64,000 bases of DNA from Ewingella sp. CoE-038-23. GTDB lineage: Bacteria > Pseudomonadota > Gammaproteobacteria > Enterobacterales > Enterobacteriaceae. The notes beneath the pieces were generated by a model, which was given only the letters and a program-made list of their open reading frames with translations, did no database searches and was not told the DNA's origin. Where the stretch lies: NCBI RefSeq assembly GCF_040419245.1, contig NZ_JAZHOH010000001.1:372001-436000 (forward strand), read 5' to 3'. Each line of letters opens with the position of its first letter. Within the stretch, counting starts at the first letter, position 1. Below are positions 15,405 to 24,311 of this stretch, one piece after another. The translations under genes were made by a program, and so were the position numbers.

Positions 15405-15619
15405 AATTTGGGTGAGCAAAAGCGTGAGGCATTATTACACAGTGCCACATCATATGTTTAGGCAGAACGCTAATTCCGGCTGCGGATTTTGCCGCAGCGA
15501 AGAGAGTGTATTCTCCCCATCAACACAATGAAATGTGCTGGATACATTTACAGGGATTTGTATGTGGTTTTGGAATGGGGATCGCAGGGAATGGGGGATA
15601 ATACAGGATCAAAATTAAC

Positions 15620-15646
15620 AAAGCCCCCTTCTTGGGGGCCATTTTT
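15620..15646. terminator. Terminator at the end of the methyltransferase/ATPase/receiver operon
   Basis: Stem GCCCCC/GGGGGC with a five-base loop. A T-run follows on the plus strand (ATTTTT) and TTTGTT on the minus strand. A second stem (CCACCT/AGGTGG) lies just to the right, so the operon ending at 15678 is closed by two adjacent hairpins. Confidence 0.75.
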
Positions 15647-15677
15647 CAGACCACCTTTTCAAGAGGTGGCTTTTTCT

Positions 15678-17492
15678 TTACCAAATGCTTTTTTTATTCT
15701 GGAAATCCAACCCAACGCGAGTTTGAGAAGAGCCGAATTTATGGAGTAAATTAAGAGCATATTCATAGCGCAATTCTGCAATTGCCGATGCTTGAATATT
15801 TATCATTGTTAAAGTCTTTCCATTAATCGATTCTTCCTCTCGTACGCACCTCAATGATAATTGGTTATCCTCGAAGTAACGACCTTGATTTTCTGCATAA
15901 AATGTATCCCAGTGAGGATTGTCCTTACCTATCCAATATGCCTCAGGAATTCCATTAATATTTAGGTAAATATAATCATTTTTATTTGCATGTTCATTTG
16001 CCGTGCTCAAAACAGCTAGTTCAAATTTTATAGCTTTAAATACTAAATGGGTCTGGCCTATACGTGATTCCCACATGCTAGATTTTTGTCCAGGGATTAG
16101 ATCGCATGCCGGAGTAATACAGACCCACTTTTCACCATTTATATCTAAAACTGTTCCGGTTATTAAATGATTATTGCATACTGGCATTGAACACGAAAAA
16201 GCATTTAGCTGTCCTAGGGCTAGATCATTTCTGTTAATGCAATCTTTGAAAAATTGCTTGACAAATTCCTTACTATTTCCAGGGTTTAAATTCTTAGCAA
16301 CTGCCATGATTTTTTTAGAAAAGTCTCTCAGCTCTATACGAGATGCTGTAGCTAACTGTTCCCAGTGTAGATTAATGGCCTTATCGTGAGCATAGTCGCT
16401 TTCCGAATTTTGTAGAAGGCTATAGAGCCAACCTGCTTGAGCATATCGGTTACTGATAATTTTAGATGCTTGTTCAATACCTCTCTCGTCAAGCTCATAA
16501 CGCATTTTTGCCATAAGAAGATGCATTGGAGAAGCATTCTGTTTAGTTAATGCCAAATTCAGCGAACCAATCAACTCATCCTCAGGATTATCATTGCTTT
16601 TCCTAATTATAGAAATGAAAGTTTTACCAGTGCTAATATAGTTTGTATTATCACACCAGTGCCACTTCAAATCTGTACGAATGTTTTCTGCGAATTTTAT
16701 ATTATTTTTTTTTAGAATGTCATATAAGCGCCATTTAACAACATCTATGCCATTTATACCGATTTCCTTAGCTACTTCTAATATCTCGTCAGAATAATGA
16801 TTCAACGGATTATCAGGATTTTGAGGTTTAATGCATTCTTCAGGAATCATTGAAGCATAGACAGAAAGTGCATCGAGCAAGTGTAAGTCTTCTCTGATCC
16901 AGTTGTATTTGTCACCATCATTATTAACGTCTAACCAATCGTTGATTTTTTCATCAATATCATCAGTTGGAATAAGGATATTATCGTTACTAATCCTTAT
17001 GAAATCAGTTAGTATATCCTTAAAAACAGACTTAATATCACCTGCAAGCCCTTTCGTATGAACGAGAGTAATATTGTAGTGATTGTTGTTATCTAAGGAT
17101 TGGATAATGCTTCGTGCTCTTTTACCTTCATCGGCAGAGGTATCACCATCTAAATGATAATCGAGTATTATTAAATCACTATGATGTATGTATCCAGGGA
17201 TAGACTCATGACCTCCAAAGTTAGGAGACTTTCCGTCAAAAACATCTATGCTCCACTTGCGAGATGATTGGCACATTGTTATTATTTTTTTTAGCCGTTC
17301 AATATTTGCTCCAGTGTAAGTAGTGGCTGATTTACTCTCTCTACTTTGTCCACTCGTATCTGGATTAACAGTCTTCATATCAATCAATGACAAAAGTGTA
17401 GGGTATTCATCATCTATAACAGTTACATTACGAATAGGGGTTATAAATGCTTCCGTAATTAAGTCACTGTAAGTTGCGACAGTTTCAGTCAT
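15678..17492 (-). CDS. Receiver-domain protein of the methyltransferase/ATPase operon
   Basis: 604 residues from the ATG at 17492, which has AAAGGAA seven bases upstream. The frame is open to 17531. The N-terminal 170 residues look like a two-component receiver domain: the acidic pocket NVTVIDDEYP near residue 25, the likely phospho-acceptor in SDLIILDYHLDGD near 120, and a following ITLVHTKG strand. A large insertion separates the first two. The remaining 430 or so residues match nothing I know and contain no DNA-binding motif I recognise. The start overlaps the stop of the split ATPase gene (ATGACTGA), so the receiver and the kinase-like C terminus of the ATPase probably act as a pair. The DNA is clearly AT-rich compared with flanking genes. 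Confidence 0.7.
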   Translation of the reverse strand: MTETVATYSDLITEAFITPIRNVTVIDDEYPTLLSLIDMKTVNPDTSGQSRESKSATTYTGANIERLKKIITMCQSSRKWSIDVFDGKSPNFGGHESIPGYIHHSDLIILDYHLDGDTSADEGKRARSIIQSLDNNNHYNITLVHTKGLAGDIKSVFKDILTDFIRISNDNILIPTDDIDEKINDWLDVNNDGDKYNWIREDLHLLDALSVYASMIPEECIKPQNPDNPLNHYSDEILEVAKEIGINGIDVVKWRLYDILKKNNIKFAENIRTDLKWHWCDNTNYISTGKTFISIIRKSNDNPEDELIGSLNLALTKQNASPMHLLMAKMRYELDERGIEQASKIISNRYAQAGWLYSLLQNSESDYAHDKAINLHWEQLATASRIELRDFSKKIMAVAKNLNPGNSKEFVKQFFKDCINRNDLALGQLNAFSCSMPVCNNHLITGTVLDINGEKWVCITPACDLIPGQKSSMWESRIGQTHLVFKAIKFELAVLSTANEHANKNDYIYLNINGIPEAYWIGKDNPHWDTFYAENQGRYFEDNQLSLRCVREEESINGKTLTMINIQASAIAELRYEYALNLLHKFGSSQTRVGLDFQNKKSIW

Positions 17493-18332
17493 GATTAATT
17501 CCTTTGAAATTAATTGCAAAATTTGCACCACTTAGAACTTTAAAACTATCTCGAGTTTCATATCTAATACTATGTCCACCTGCCATAAGGTTTTGTTTGC
17601 ATAGATAAAGGCCAACACCTCTCCCCCCTTTTTGTTTACGGGTAAAGAATAATGTGAATAAATTTTCGTAATCATCACTGTCAACGCCGGGACCGTTATC
17701 ACTGACGAATACTTCTTCGTTAACATAGCTTATGAGAATTTTTTTTGACTTTTCCTGATCTCTTTGTACCCAGTAAATAGAGTTATTTATAATATTTATA
17801 AATACTGGGTAAATTCTTGATGGTAGATCCAATAAAGATAATTTTGTGAACTCTTTACTACATGATAATTCTATGTTTGCAATTGAAAGCTGCTTTGAGA
17901 AATAGGATTTAATATATTTTTCTATTTCAAGCCCTGTTATTTTTTGTACTTCTTTTTTTCCAGATAATTTCAATGGTGATAAGAATTTAAGTTTTTCAAC
18001 TAATGAATTGTGACATTTTAGAGCCATGTCAATATTTTCATGTTGAGAAGATGTCAGATTTCCATCATCAATATTTTTTAAGGCATGAGTCAACTCTTGA
18101 TCTAAACTATCAAGTTCATGACCAATAATTTCAACTGTAATACCAAGCTGAGCTAGTGAATGTAGGCGCAAAACTTCTTCACGATGTCTGGTTGTTTCGT
18201 TCATACTATGAATAGCTAAACTTTCCAAGTCTATTTCTTCGTTTATTCTCTCTAAAGCTGTAATATATGGGGAAAGTTTTTGTGTGTTTTCAATTTCAAC
18301 CCGTTCTTGTTCTTCGTCTAACTTATTTAGTA

Positions 18333-18341
18333 AAAGAGGCA
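18333..18341. repeat. Target-site duplication of IS1, left copy
   Basis: AAAGAGGCA directly left of IS1, repeated at 19110-19118 on the right. Nine bases is the usual length for IS1, and exact identity suggests a recent insertion. Confidence 0.95.
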
Positions 18342-18396
18342 GGTAATGGTGCCAACTTACTGATTTAGTGTATGATGGTGTTTTTGAGGTGCTCCA

Positions 18397-18672
18397 GTGG
18401 CTTCTGTTTCTATCAGCTGTCCCTCCTGTTCAGCTACTGAAGGCGTGGTGCGTAACGGTAAAAGTACTGCCGGACATCAGCGCTATCTCTGCTCTCACTG
18501 CCGTAAAACATGGCAGCTACAGTTCACTTACACCGCTTCTCAACCCGGTACGCATCAGAAAATCATTGATATGGCCATGAATGGCGTCGGATGTCGCGCC
18601 AGTGCACGCATTATGGGCGTTGGCCTCAACACGGTTTTACGACACTTAAAAAACTCAGGCCGCAGTCGGTAA
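18397..18672 (+). CDS. insA: IS1 protein InsA
   Basis: 91 residues, almost identical to E. coli IS1 InsA. A zinc-finger-like N terminus (CPSC, CSHC) is followed by a helix-turn-helix. InsA binds the IS ends and represses transposition. The A6C stretch at 18648-18654 inside this gene is where ribosomes shift to produce the InsAB' transposase. Confidence 0.97.
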
Positions 18673-19094
18673 CCTCGCGCATACAACCGGGCAGTGATGT
18701 GATTGTCTGCGCGGAAATGGACGAACAGTGGGGTTACGTCGGCGCTAAATCACGCCAGCGCTGGTTGTTTTACGCGTATGACAGGATACGGAGGACGGTT
18801 GTGGCGCACGTATTCGGTGAACGCACGTTGGCCACGCTGGAGCGTCTTCTGAGCCTGCTGTCGGCCTTTGAGGTCGTGGTATGGATGACGGATGGCTGGC
18901 CGCTGTATGAATCACGCCTGAAGGGAGAACTGCACGTTATCAGCAAGCGATATACGCAGCGCATTGAGCGGCATAACCTGAATCTGAGGCAGCATCTGTC
19001 AAGGCTGGGCAGGAAGTCACTGTCGTTCTCAAAATCGGTGGAGCTGCATGACAAAGTCATCGGGCATTATCTGAACATAAAACACTATCAGTAA
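18591..19094 (+). CDS. insB: IS1 transposase part InsB
   Basis: 167-codon frame nearly identical to IS1 InsB, holding the DDE-type catalytic part ([37 protein letters not shown]). It is normally expressed as the C-terminal part of InsAB' by frameshifting. All visible features are intact, so the element may still be active. Confidence 0.96.
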
Positions 19095-19109
19095 GTTGGA
19101 GTCATTACC

Positions 19110-19118
19110 AAAGAGGCA
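19110..19118. repeat. Target-site duplication of IS1, right copy
   Basis: AAAGAGGCA, identical to 18333-18341. Together they mark the empty site within codon 707 of the dual ATPase gene. Confidence 0.95.
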
Positions 19119-21227
19119 AGGGGATTTTATCAAGTTTTATATCTTCAAGATCCGACTCCATTACAAGTTTATATTGCTCACGGCAAGTTTTTATCAATTC
19201 CTCAAATTCAAAATGTTGTTTAGAGAGAACTTCTTTTCCGCGAGCTGCATATTTTGTAATTGTATTATTAATGCTAGAAAGTTTACTTCTGTATACTTCA
19301 TATGCTTTTTCGTAATCACTTTTTTGAGTGGAATCAGAAATTGCTTTATTAATTAAAAAAGTAAGATCTTTTACTATTTCCCTGCATTTAAGTTCTTCTT
19401 TTCTATAGGATCGATAATCATCCTCTAAGCGGCCTAAATTAGTAGGTAGTGGACTCAGTGAATACCCTTGTACTATTTCAAGGTAAGTATCAGTTGACTG
19501 TTTTAGAGCGTGGAGCTCCTCAATAGAGCCAAGACTCAGTCTACCATCAATACTTTCTCGAAACTCTGTAAGGGTAGACACGAGACTAGTTAATGGAATT
19601 ATATTGCGCTTGATGGAGGATCGTATGCGTTTACGTTCCTTATTCAATAGCTTTAGTCTATCTTCTTCTGCTTTCAAAAGTGCTTTTTTTTCTTTTATAT
19701 CTTCAAGTGTAGTTTTTCTCCCTTTTGAGTTACGACCAAAGTGTTGATCTGCAGAATCTAATAATATCTTTTCGACAATTTCTCTAAAAAGTTTTGAGGC
19801 CCTATTTTCAATAAAACCCTCTCGGCCAGCTTTATCTTTTAAATTTGGATTATTTTCTCGAGAAATTGCAATTCTTCCGAACATACGTCGGCCTGACCAA
19901 AAATAACGACCAGCATTCTTTGAACGTCTTTCTTCTATCGAGAAGTAATCACTATCGGCTCGGCCATAAGGCATTACACGCAAACCATCACGGTATATTC
20001 TAAACCCGCCATACATATCGGATTGCTCAAGAAAATGAGAGTGTTGGATATCATTTAGTGAGGTACTTCCAGATAAAACTTCAAAAGTACCAATCCGTAA
20101 ATGAAATGAACCAAATGCACTATCTTTTCTTGTTTTATAAACTTGCTTAGGCTTTATAATATATTCTTCGATCCATTTTCCAAATACTTTAACTCTACCT
20201 TTAAAGTATCCATCACTATCAACGACTCCTTCTATAATATGCTCTAATTCCTCGAGATTACGCAGGTCAAACTCGCGTTCTTCTCCAATTATTATTCGAG
20301 GAGCATTATTTACCCAACCTGTAACATTATATTTAAAGTCGTCAATTAAAGGCTCATTGTCCCGAGAAAATGGGTCGGTAAAATTAGATAAAGTTTGGAA
20401 GAAGCGATCACGAGTACTCTTCTCTGTGTCATCTGCTTGATTTATTGGAGTATTTGATAGTTGTATGTAAATGTCATATTGCACATCTGCGATAAACATT
20501 GCAGTACCATGTGAAGAATCACCGGACCACACTGACCATTTATTGAAATGTTTTTCCTTGAAAATTTCTCGAATTAATGTTTGTTCAATTTTTTGTTGAG
20601 TGGTTTTTTCTAACCCATCTTCAATTTCTTGTTTGCTAAATGTATTCCAAGCATCAGCTATTCTTTGAGTGCGTGCTGCATCGTCTGAATCGCCCCATAT
20701 ATTGCCCATCATTTGGTCAAATAAAGAAGGAAGTATTTCTTCTAACTCATTTTTATGACTAAATTCTCTAACGGGGATTCTTATATCATTGAGATATAAG
20801 AATGGATTTTCAAATAAACGCCAGTCTATAAGTGCGACAACATAGTCACTATCATGTCGTTTTGAAATAACTAATAAGAGAGGCCCAAGAGCCGCAGATG
20901 ATAAACGGCCAATACCTTTCTGACCTTGTTTCGGCCTTGCTGGAAGACCATTGCGGTCTGCTGGAGTAATAGAGAAGCCATTCGTTTTTGATTCCGTACC
21001 TACAATGAGCCATTTAGATTCGAATTCACTTCTATTCATACCATGACCATCATCTAAAATGGCGGAGATATTCATATCATCATCAAAGATATGGAGGTCA
21101 ACTTTACGAGCATAAGCATCGTAAGCATTTTTCCATAATTCAGATATAGCTGTAGGGCAGTCAGCTATCTGCTCTCTTCCTAGATGGTCTATTGTTCTTG
21201 CTCTTGTCTGAAAGGTGACATGCCGCG

Positions 21228-22442
21228 TCATAATGAATATTCCTTATTAGTTTCTTCTTGGTTTTTGTTAGCAATTATATCTACTTGGGCGGATAATAAA
21301 TTTATTATTGCTTGTAGTAATACTTCCCCTAATTTTACAGGGACTGCATTGCCGATCTGTTTAGATACAGCCATAGATCCACCCTTGAAGACAAAGTCAT
21401 CAGGAAACGTTTGCAAGCGAGCAGCATGTCGTAATGATATGCCTCTGGGCAACCATGGGTGGACAAACCGGCCTTTGGAAGGGTTATTACATCCGGTCGT
21501 GATTGTATTCGATGGCATATGTGGATAGATTCTTCCATATACATCTAAATGGCCCGCATATTCTTTATGGCAATTTAACTGTCTTCCTGATTCAATTCTG
21601 TCCCCAATTAAAGGTGTATTCTCAAAAAGATTCGTTATTTCCGCTGAGTGTATCATATGTACATTACAAGGGTCATCCTCTGAAAGTGGGGCGCCCCAAA
21701 CTAATTTTTTGATGAGATCTTCAGCAATATTTTCCTCATACTTAAATTTCTCGATTAAACGCTCTTTGAATTCAATTAAAATAGATTGCTTTGGACATTC
21801 GAAAACAGTTGATGCAGTTGTTAGCGGAAGTGTATTATTCTTTCCATGCGTAGCTTTTGGTGGCCACGAGAAGCTAGAAGTACAAATATCTTCTCTGACA
21901 GCTAGTATAAATGCTCTTTTACGATTTTGTGGAACACCGTAATCTTTAGCATTTAATATATATGGTTTATTACCAATGATTTTATAGTTATGCTCTTTTG
22001 TCAGTCGTATAAATTCATCTAGATAATCGGCATGCCGAGCCCAAAGTAATCCAGGAACGTTCTCCACTAAAAAAACTTTAGGTCTCAATTCTTTAACAAA
22101 ATCAAAATAGCGTAATAATAAAGCATTTCTTGGGTCATCTTTACCAGCATTATTAATGCGATGAGATGAAAAACCTTGGCAGGGCGGACCCCCTAGTAAT
22201 ATATCAAGATCGCCTTGTTTTAAGTTCTGAAAATTCATCAAAGAACTAATATCTACTTTGTTGATATCCTCAGAAAATACTTGCGTTAATGCGCCATATT
22301 TAACAACAAGATTGTTGTAATATGTTTCTGATGCTAGTTCGTCAAGCTCTATCGCAGCTTGTACATCAATATCTGCTTTAAGGGCCGCAAGAGAGAATCC
22401 ACCGGCGCCAGCAAATAGGTCAATAGCTTTTAACTTGTGCAT
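21228..22442 (-). CDS. DNA (cytosine-5) methyltransferase
   Basis: 404 residues from the ATG at 22442; the frame is open to 22502. All main m5C-methyltransferase motifs are visible in order: motif I DLFAGAGGFS (residue 8), catalytic motif IV GGPPCQGFSSHR, motif VI FLVENVPGL, motif VIII QNRKRAFIL, then the variable recognition region, and QTFPDDFVFKG with QIGNAVPVKL as IX-X. The order is canonical. No very-short-patch repair or recognisable restriction endonuclease gene lies beside it. Instead the stop overlaps the start of the dual ATPase gene (ATGA). The ribosome binding site is poor. It is AT-rich like the rest of the operon and probably acquired. Confidence 0.92.
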   Translation of the reverse strand: MHKLKAIDLFAGAGGFSLAALKADIDVQAAIELDELASETYYNNLVVKYGALTQVFSEDINKVDISSLMNFQNLKQGDLDILLGGPPCQGFSSHRINNAGKDDPRNALLLRYFDFVKELRPKVFLVENVPGLLWARHADYLDEFIRLTKEHNYKIIGNKPYILNAKDYGVPQNRKRAFILAVREDICTSSFSWPPKATHGKNNTLPLTTASTVFECPKQSILIEFKERLIEKFKYEENIAEDLIKKLVWGAPLSEDDPCNVHMIHSAEITNLFENTPLIGDRIESGRQLNCHKEYAGHLDVYGRIYPHMPSNTITTGCNNPSKGRFVHPWLPRGISLRHAARLQTFPDDFVFKGGSMAVSKQIGNAVPVKLGEVLLQAIINLLSAQVDIIANKNQEETNKEYSL

Positions 22443-22502
22443 AATAAGGTTTTTTTTGTTGTTAATCACACTAGTATACGTAACATTTAGAGCATATCCC
22501 AC

Positions 22503-23088
22503 TTTTGAACATTAATGTATATAATGACAGTACAAGCTCAACTACCTGTGATATCAGTAACTTACTGATAATAAAGTGTTTTATTCGGTTCGTGGAAAGA
22601 AATGAATTGCCTTAAGTACTCTAATTTAGCACTGTGTCAGCATAAAACTATTTAGCTAAAGATCCATATAGACATAATGCCTTATTTATGCCTGAAATAT
22701 TTCGAAAAATGAAGAGTTGTGAAAAAATATTTTTTTCTATCTTACGAGCCTATAAATTTTATCTATCTGATTTTTTTTCCCTCTTCGACTATCCTCTGTG
22801 CTGGCTACACATCCAATTCAACTAATCTTAGGCCACGATACTTACTTCTAAGTACGATTTATCGGTGAATGACCTACAGCACTCGATTTTCAAGGGGGCT
22901 CAGAGGCCTAGGAACGCTGCATTGGAGATGCTATTAGCTATCGAAAGCGGCAGTGCAGCGCAAGAGCTATTGTTAAAATTTTTCTCATATTGGGAGGGAA
23001 ATAGAGGTCTCCTTTGAGTAGGCTTCATCAACCACAAACCCAGATAGCCCACATCAACCCCCCAAAATGCCCACAAACTCTCTTTTCT
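22503..23088. other. Gene-poor stretch upstream of the methyltransferase gene
   Basis: AT-rich DNA that must include the operon promoter near the left end. Besides a degraded chbG piece (22807-22895) I see no convincing gene. A 64-codon minus-strand frame at 22900-23094 has no features that make me believe it. Confidence 0.5.
22807..22895 (-). pseudogene. Relic of the 3' end of chbG
   Basis: About 90 bases align with bases 24451-24540 of the intact chbG 1.6 kb to the right, in the same direction. On the minus strand it reads with scattered matches (SKY, RL-ELDV) and two stops against the ChbG C terminus ([14 protein letters not shown]). It is too diverged to be a fresh duplication. A second chbG 3' end on the far side of the fic gene could mark an old integration event. 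Confidence 0.7.
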
Positions 23089-23234: not shown

Positions 23235-24311
23235 ATGAGTTGGGATCCTGAAACGCCTTACAACGCGTTGCCCATACTGCCGCCTGACTTGGAGCAGATT
23301 GAAACGCGCAGCGTACTCAAAGCTTGCATCAGTGCGCGCTCTGCAATCGCTGAGTTGAAAACTTCTGGTGAGTTGATCCCCGACCAAGGGTTGCTGATCA
23401 ATATCCTGCCGATGCTCGAAGCGAAGGACTCATCGCGCATTGAGAACATCGTAACGACCAGCGATCAGCTCTTTCAGTATGTTGACCGTACAGAGGGTGC
23501 CGATCCGGCGACGAAAGAAGCGTTGCGCTATCGCACCGCGCTTTTTGATGGCTACACCCACCTTGAAGACTATCCACTCTGCACAAACACAGCGATAGCT
23601 ATCTGTACCAAATTACGCGCCGTTCAAACTGATATCAGGAAAACGCCGGGCACGATGTTGCGTGACCAGAATAATAACGTGGTTTATACGCCGCCGGTGG
23701 GTGAAGAGGCCATTCGTAACTTAATGGCGAACTGGGAACGGTTTATCCATGGTGATGATGATTTAGATCCCTTGGTAAAAATGGCTATTGCGCACTATCA
23801 GTTTGAGTGCATCCACCCCTTCCCAGATGGGAATGGGAGAACGGGCCGTATCCTGAATATTCTCTACCTGATCCAGAGCGAACTGCTTTCGCTACCCATC
23901 CTGTATCTGTCTCGTTTTATCTTGGAGAGGCGTGACGATTACTACAGGCTCCTACGCGGAGTGACAGAGGAGGGGGATTGGGAGTCGTGGATATTATTTA
24001 TGCTGGAGGCGGTGGAAAGCACCTCCCGATGGACTACTGAGAAAATCTCGATTGTGCGGGCCTTGATGGCTGAAACCTCGGCGTATGTTCGCGACAAACT
24101 ACCGAAAATTTACACCCATGAACTGGTCCAAGCGCTTTTTGCACAGCCTTATTGTCGGATCGAGAATCTGGTTGAACGCGGCGTGGCTAAGCGCCAGACG
24201 GCATCACTCTACCTCAAGCAGTTGGTTGAAATTGGTGTGTTGGAGGAGATGAGCGTTGGTCGTGAAAAGCTGTATATAAACACCAGATTGCTACGGGAAT
24301 TGAATCAGTAA
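23235..24311 (+). CDS. Fic-domain AMPylase, class II type
   Basis: 358 residues. An N-terminal inhibitory helix carries SSRIEN (about residue 61), matching the (S/T)xxxE(G/N) pattern of class II Fic enzymes. The Fic core follows with [12 protein letters not shown] near residue 195, including the catalytic histidine and the phosphate-binding glycines. The C-terminal 90 residues look like a winged helix ([22 protein letters not shown]). Such enzymes transfer AMP to protein hydroxyls. With the palindromic repeats touching the start codon, self-repression through the C-terminal domain is plausible. No Shine-Dalgarno is visible. A toxin, defence or regulatory role cannot be told apart from sequence. 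Confidence 0.88.

What the first reader, a model, noticed from the sequence alone, without database searches (positions are those of the whole stretch)
15678..22442. Three-gene operon: cytosine methyltransferase, dual GHKL ATPase, receiver-domain protein
All three genes overlap their neighbour and are AT-rich next to leuX. One protein fuses a MORC/MutL-like ATPase to a histidine-kinase-like ATPase. Its partner has a receiver domain plus 430 unknown residues. MORC-like ATPases are known beside methyltransferases in restriction-like systems. The added phosphorelay pair, and the lack of a visible nuclease, suggest a defence or epigenetic switch that uses two-component logic. I do not know a named system with exactly this make-up.
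Basis: partly seen in the sequence, partly recalled or inferred. Interest (0 to 1): 0.85.

Follow-up and report, generated by a model that had tools for sequence, protein, structure and literature searches.

The report
Methylase, dual-ATPase kinase, receiver defence cassette
Three bacterial genes that travel together, already described in 2021 as a predicted two-component-like set of unknown function, sit here in a slot where a close relative keeps restriction enzymes, which points to a phage-defence system, although this copy is broken by a jumping gene.

Summary
Three overlapping minus-strand genes encode a C5-cytosine methyltransferase, a MORC-like plus histidine-kinase-like ATPase (split by IS1, 9-bp target duplication) and a receiver protein. 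The make-up is not new: Bellieny-Rabelo et al. 2021 (PMC8011034) described this set (Pfam HEF_HK, Response_reg_2, upstream C5-methylase), without functional test.

New here: the trio keeps its order in 32 of 37 loci from named genomes. Kinase His and receiver Asp are invariant. ATPase and receiver co-diverge tightly (r=0.95); the methylase is exchanged (r about 0.5; one pair 93-94% versus 59%). A congener carries type I plus type IV restriction genes in the same slot. One of two viral-contig copies lies in the P2-phage gpA-gpQ defence hotspot. Flanking genes match many defence profiles. The receiver fold probably runs to residue 330; the last 150 residues weakly resemble MazF/CcdB toxins (unproven).

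Best reading: a methylation-marked, restriction-like defence system in which a MORC/kinase ATPase senses unmarked DNA and switches on a receiver-linked effector by phosphotransfer. Trigger, phosphotransfer and output are inferred. This copy is probably inactive.

The parts
21228..22442 (-). C5-cytosine DNA methyltransferase, 404 aa
   Evidence: PF00145 E=4.6e-62; homologue 5' of the ATPase gene in 32 of 37 loci
19110..21231 (-). ATPase gene, host part 5' of IS1: MORC/MutL-like GHKL ATPase (HATPase_c_3 at residues 27-137) and following region
   Evidence: PF13589 49.8 bits; GHKL motif residues 35 of 36 in relatives. The mechanical ORF ends at a stop inside IS1 (19105)
18342..19109 (.). IS1 insertion that splits the ATPase gene
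   Evidence: inverted repeats 18342-18364 and 19087-19109; best match 99.4% to annotated IS1
18333..18341 (.). 9-bp target duplication, left copy (right copy 19110-19118)
   Evidence: identical 9-mers
17485..18341 (-). ATPase gene, host part 3' of IS1: HEF_HK (dimerisation/His) and HATPase_c; mechanical ORF 17485-18228
   Evidence: PF19191 29.0 bits, PF02518 45.4 bits; His37-Glu38 of the ORF 36 of 36 in relatives
15678..17492 (-). Receiver protein, 604 aa (Response_reg_2 plus long C-terminal part)
   Evidence: PF19192 43.5 bits; start from homologues
16542..17435 (-). Extent of the receiver fold in the model (residues 33-330, 617-aa numbering), with Asp124 and Lys311
15717..16178 (-). C-terminal output domain (residues 452-605), weak MazF/CcdB-like fold
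   Evidence: no sequence support
15622..15640 (-). Terminator-like hairpin after the receiver gene
   Evidence: 5 such sites in the region, shuffles give 4.6 on average, so weak
15599..23047 (.). Variable slot; replaced by type I and type IV restriction genes in same-genus genome G005

Best explanation
A restriction-like system against foreign DNA, most likely phages. (1) The methyltransferase marks self DNA. (2) The ATPase couples a MORC/MutL-type clamp module to a cytoplasmic histidine kinase and acts as sensor: contact with unmarked DNA closes the clamp and starts autophosphorylation on the HEF_HK histidine. (3) The phosphoryl group passes to Asp124 of the receiver protein. (4) This releases its C-terminal domain as effector, acting on nucleic acid or as a growth-arrest output. 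ATPase and receiver are the fixed core; the methyltransferase is an exchangeable address module. Shown by sequence comparison: linkage, conserved catalytic residues, methylase exchange, defence-type locations. Inferred: trigger, phosphotransfer, effector activity, phage resistance itself. In this window the sensor gene is split by IS1, so this copy is probably inactive.
For: Order and strand kept in 32 of 37 loci. Kinase His 36 of 36, receiver Asp124 and Lys311 37 of 37, GHKL motif residues of both ATPases 35-36 of 36. ATPase and receiver distances correlate at 0.946 while methylase correlates at 0.49-0.56; methylase exchange between near-identical cores. Slot holds type I and type IV restriction genes in a congener. 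Phage copy L100 in the P2 gpA-gpQ hotspot (PMC9122126 passages). Flank ORFs match 126 PADLOC families against 5 for control ORFs. Vsr genes, expected beside C5-methylases, in 13 of 37 loci by similarity clustering, 8 of 8 tested confirmed.
Confidence: 0.5

Rival explanations
1. A regulatory two-component pair that controls the methyltransferase or neighbouring restriction systems (the speculation in PMC8011034).
For: Receiver and kinase-like domains with intact catalytic residues; methylase next door in most loci; Bellieny-Rabelo et al. propose it.
Against: No DNA-binding output domain was recognised in the receiver protein; the methylase is exchanged without change of the core, odd for a dedicated regulator; a clamp-type ATPase is not needed for such a role.
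Confidence: 0.2
2. A composite type II restriction-modification system in which ATPase and receiver protein together form a sequence-matched restriction enzyme.
For: The ATPase N-terminus matches BbrUII/HgiDII restriction enzymes (NF050001, E=5.8e-17, residues 12-128) and a PADLOC type II enzyme model (E=6.3e-11); C5-methylase and Vsr neighbours.
Against: 61.5 bits against a cut-off of 550, N-terminal ATPase only. No recognised nuclease domain and few invariant residues between the MORC part and HEF_HK. A matched nuclease should be exchanged together with the methylase, but the core stays 93-94% identical while the methylase is 59%.
Confidence: 0.15
3. A non-cutting block: the MORC-like clamp compacts or occupies unmarked DNA and stops its replication, with the receiver protein only tuning the ATPase; the methylase would be the specificity factor as in BREX.
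For: Eukaryotic MORCs act in silencing by chromatin condensation (PMC8011034 discussion). No nuclease is seen. In BREX the methyltransferase recognises the site (abstract starts of PMC11842806 and PMC11341690 in a search listing), which fits an exchangeable methylase.
Against: Gives no role to the conserved C-terminal domain of the receiver protein.
Confidence: 0.1

Closest known systems
HEF_HK / Response_reg_2 two-component-like set with C5-methylase (Bellieny-Rabelo et al. 2021, PMC8011034)
   Same: Same three proteins, same domain order, same neighbourhood: this is a member
   Different: This copy is split by IS1. The paper reports linkage; methylase exchange, the restriction slot, the prophage hotspot, the longer receiver fold and the fold hint are added here
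paraMORC ATPases of R-M operons (Iyer et al. 2008, PMC2292703, passages)
   Same: N-terminal GHKL ATPase beside DNA methylase genes
   Different: Added HEF_HK and HATPase_c, partner receiver; the passages seen name no kinase or receiver partner
BbrUII/HgiDII restriction enzymes (NF050001)
   Same: N-terminal GHKL ATPase
   Different: Only residues 12-128 match, far under the cut-off
Detocs (recalled, from no call)
   Same: Works like it in outline: kinase-like sensor and receiver-linked effector
   Different: As recalled, different sensor and effector and no methylase; membership not tested
BREX (recalled; abstract starts)
   Same: Methylation marks self; methylase as specificity factor is the analogy for an exchangeable methylase
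   Different: Different proteins; no BREX profile matched the ATPase pieces or receiver protein in PADLOC 2.0.0

Membership tests
HEF_HK/Response_reg_2 set (PMC8011034) | Receiver protein with Response_reg_2 over the cut-off | tested here: met
   43.5 bits against 27
HEF_HK/Response_reg_2 set (PMC8011034) | HATPase_c_3 + HEF_HK + HATPase_c in one protein | tested here: met
   All three over the cut-offs, but on two ORFs here because of IS1; one ORF with similarity to both parts and over 800 aa in 36 of 37 relatives
HEF_HK/Response_reg_2 set (PMC8011034) | Adjacent genes, C5-methylase upstream | tested here: met
HEF_HK/Response_reg_2 set (PMC8011034) | Conserved His and Asp of the phosphorelay | tested here: met
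   36 of 36 and 37 of 37 relatives, both present in the window pieces
paraMORC | N-terminal GHKL domain with ATP-binding motifs | tested here: met
paraMORC | S5 domain after the GHKL domain | tested here: inconclusive
   An invariant DKAGREG block is present; no S5 profile was reported by Pfam
BbrUII/HgiDII restriction enzymes | Full-length match to NF050001 over its cut-off | tested here: not met
   61.5 bits against 550, residues 12-128 only
Type II R-M system | Restriction nuclease partnered with the methylase | tested here: inconclusive
   No nuclease domain by Pfam or recognised by fold; a divergent one is not excluded
MazF/CcdB toxin fold (receiver C-terminus) | Fold | tested here: inconclusive
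MazF/CcdB toxin fold (receiver C-terminus) | Sequence match to PemK or CcdB families | tested here: inconclusive
   Not among the families listed for 38 members at E 0.5; hhalign against 4 MazF and 3 CcdB sequences gave probability under 1%, with shallow alignments
Detocs | Homologues of its three proteins | not tested
   Recalled resemblance only

The most novel reading that the evidence does not exclude
A restriction-like immune system with an exchangeable methyltransferase as address module, a MORC-type DNA clamp wired to a histidine kinase as sensor, and a receiver-gated MazF/CcdB-fold domain as growth-arrest effector: two-component signalling that triggers abortive infection on unmarked DNA.
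Probability: 0.15. Interest if true: 0.85.

Novelty: new member of a known kind. Interest (0 to 1): 0.5.

Why it matters
The family is widespread across phyla, yet I found no functional test in the held library. If it is defence, histidine-aspartate signalling would join a MORC-type clamp and DNA methylation in one immune circuit. The methylase exchange gives a concrete test that separates a sequence-matched restriction enzyme from an address-module design. MORC proteins matter in eukaryotic gene silencing, and a bacterial relative with a defined trigger could show what the clamp senses.

Tried and rejected

A profile search with the C-terminal domain found 28 proteins at E<=0.01. From their lengths and lack of Pfam calls I take most for fragments of the same receiver proteins; I did not open them. 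PDB sequence search gave nothing convincing.

A small neighbour ORF in 5 of 37 loci I first labelled HNH-like by eye; Pfam gave nothing at 1e-5 for the two tested (L013, L014), so the label is withdrawn.

Megablast of the whole region in E. coli genomes: the 40 listed rows of 9,559 records were all IS1 matches, and no place covered 80% of the query. Phage records: no match. PADLOC 2.0.0 has no matching model for the receiver protein at E<=1. NCBIfam likewise.

An epigenetic-switch reading was considered: no DNA-binding output, no phase-variation feature looked for; no positive support. Promoter-like sites are at the shuffle level (28 found, 27.7 expected), so no promoter is claimed.

Full report
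WHAT IS THERE. Three minus-strand genes occupy 22442-15678. The methyltransferase (404 aa; PF00145, E=4.6e-62) overlaps the ATPase gene by 4 nt, and the ATPase gene overlaps the receiver gene by 8 nt. The ATPase gene is interrupted by IS1 at 18342-19109: 23-nt imperfect inverted repeats, a 9-bp direct duplication, best match 99.4% to annotated IS1. Its N-part carries HATPase_c_3, its C-part HEF_HK and HATPase_c, all over the Pfam cut-offs. The receiver protein (604 aa from the Met used by homologues) carries PF19192, 43.5 bits against 27.

IT HAS BEEN DESCRIBED BEFORE. PMC8011034 (Bellieny-Rabelo, Pretorius and Moleleki 2021; I read parts 1-5 of 7) defined both Pfam families from this gene pair. 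It found 91.6% linkage in 644 regions, C5-methylase genes frequently upstream, Vsr genes most often directly downstream of the receiver gene where present, and 174 of 222 kinase-like proteins with the same three-domain order. It proposed a paraMORC-related two-component-like system of unknown role. In the parts read there is no functional test; expression data drew attention to the genes. A search for the two family names found two papers in the held library: this one and one on biosynthetic gene clusters (listing only). Other searches showed no functional test in the rows listed. The legend of Fig. 6F of PMC13092281 (passages and the legend section) lists HATPase and REC among domain abbreviations for predicted defence systems with domains not yet validated; it does not say whether this is the same set.

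CO-OCCURRENCE. A scan of 84,980 species genomes with the receiver-family alignment (limited by its short patterns, so a lower bound) gave 37 loci, in Proteobacteria of several classes, Acidobacteriota, Verrucomicrobia, Planctomycetes, Gemmatimonadetes and Myxococcota (from record titles and recalled taxonomy). The ATPase gene lies beside the receiver gene in 37 of 37. Methylase, ATPase and receiver are in the same order and strand in 32 of 37 (in one of these, L010, the ATPase gene is in three ORFs). In four (L018, L039, L042, L046) a methylase lies elsewhere in the locus, and in one (L043) none was seen. The family is rare in any one group: 4 of 369 genomes of the class pass the PF19192 cut-off and 5 of 369 reach E<=0.001, the window's own genome included; 3 of 60 relatives match the protein, again counting its own.

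CATALYTIC RESIDUES. Across 36 relatives with a long ATPase ORF the kinase His and following Glu are 36 of 36, the Asn, Asp and Gly motif residues of the C-terminal ATPase 35-36 of 36, and the corresponding residues of the N-terminal GHKL module 35 of 36. Across 37 receiver proteins D40, D124 and K311 are 37 of 37, D41 and T159 35 of 37 (617-aa numbering). The window's separate pieces carry the same residues. What is needed for ATP binding and phosphotransfer is thus kept.

MODULES. Over 31 loci with an unsplit trio in the usual order, pairwise distances of ATPase and receiver correlate at r=0.946, methylase with receiver at 0.486 and with ATPase at 0.562. None of 2,000 permutations reached any of these; the highest permuted values were 0.30, 0.24 and 0.26. 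Two Photobacterium loci (L014, L015) show the exchange: receiver 93%, ATPase 94%, methylase 59%, with DNA identity of 61-68% over the methylase (46% in one block) rising to 86-99% from the methylase-ATPase boundary to near the end of the receiver gene. L014 has a methylase 81% identical to that of L029, whose receiver is only 29% and ATPase 46% identical. The putative target-recognition region, whose bounds I set by motifs, differs most: 43% in L014/L015 against 64 and 73% outside it, and 41% in L016/L027 against 84 and 83%. All these methylases are still one subfamily and their targets are unknown; that specificity is exchanged is an inference.

LOCATION. In same-genus genome G005 the flanks match the window at 97.6% up to 15598 and at 96.4% from 23048. 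Between them G005 has a different segment of about 10.7 kb with ORFs matching type I restriction, specificity and methylation subunits and a type IV methyl-directed enzyme (two further small ORFs had no hit). The trio therefore occupies a restriction slot between leuX and a Fic-family gene. One of the two viral-contig copies (L100) lies between a gpA-like replication gene and the portal gene, the P2 hotspot documented in PMC9122126 (passages). The other (L099) lies beside tail-fibre genes. Of 140 chosen flank ORFs in the 37 loci (the nearest two of 150 aa or more on each side), 138 were scanned and matched 126 PADLOC families at 1e-10, against 5 families for 140 ORFs sampled from 175 in 19 arbitrary regions. 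The tool counts families, not ORFs with hits, one protein can match many models, and the controls are not matched for taxonomy, so this is a strong trend and not a rate. A Vsr-like ORF occurs in 13 of 37 loci by similarity clustering; 8 of the 13 were tested and all 8 are PF03852; 6 of these sit directly after the receiver gene. The window's genome has no Vsr match. Against the trend, the two E. coli islands opened hold mainly transposase and surface-protein genes around the trio.

MECHANISM. The most likely account: the methylase marks self; the MORC-type clamp and kinase sense unmarked DNA; phosphotransfer to Asp124 frees the C-terminal effector. The exchangeable methylase argues against a sequence-matched nuclease and for an address module or a generic reading of marks. 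I put defence with phosphotransfer gating at 0.5. Regulation of methylase or R-M genes (0.2), a composite type II enzyme (0.15) and a non-cutting block (0.1) remain. In this genome the sensor is split, so methylase and receiver are probably left without a working middle component.

VERDICT. A confirmed, well-conserved and, as far as I could find, untested system that is already in print as a predicted set. The points added here are the methylase exchange, the restriction slot, the prophage hotspot, and the extended receiver fold with a possible toxin-like output domain.

Noticed in passing
window 15599-23047: Variable slot between leuX and a Fic gene; same-genus genome G005 has type I restriction genes and a type IV methyl-directed enzyme there.
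   Followed up: yes
window 23235-24311: ORF of 358 aa that looks like a Fic-family protein (HPFPDGNGR motif read by eye, recalled) next to the slot; 3 of 138 flank ORFs of relatives match PF02661 Fic, and a Fic gene is annotated near the trio on plasmid record L049.
   Followed up: no
L100:834-6827 and L099:555-6525: Intact trios inside phage contigs: L100 between gpA-like and portal genes, L099 beside tail-fibre genes.
   Followed up: partly
L016 and L027, methylase genes: Methylases 83-84% identical outside and 41% inside the putative target-recognition region, as if that region alone had been exchanged.
   Followed up: partly
flanks of L010-L046: Two flank ORFs match methyl-directed type II restriction enzyme models (mREase_II) and two match RE_AspBHI_N, odd company for a cytosine methylase; loci not identified.
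   Followed up: no
L013, L014, L015, L020, L027: Recurrent small neighbour ORF (183-205 aa) shared by five loci; no Pfam hit in the two tested.
   Followed up: partly
L039:5843-9979: In Nannocystis the ATPase ORF is 1,379 aa, nearly 400 aa longer than most relatives; extra part not examined.
   Followed up: no
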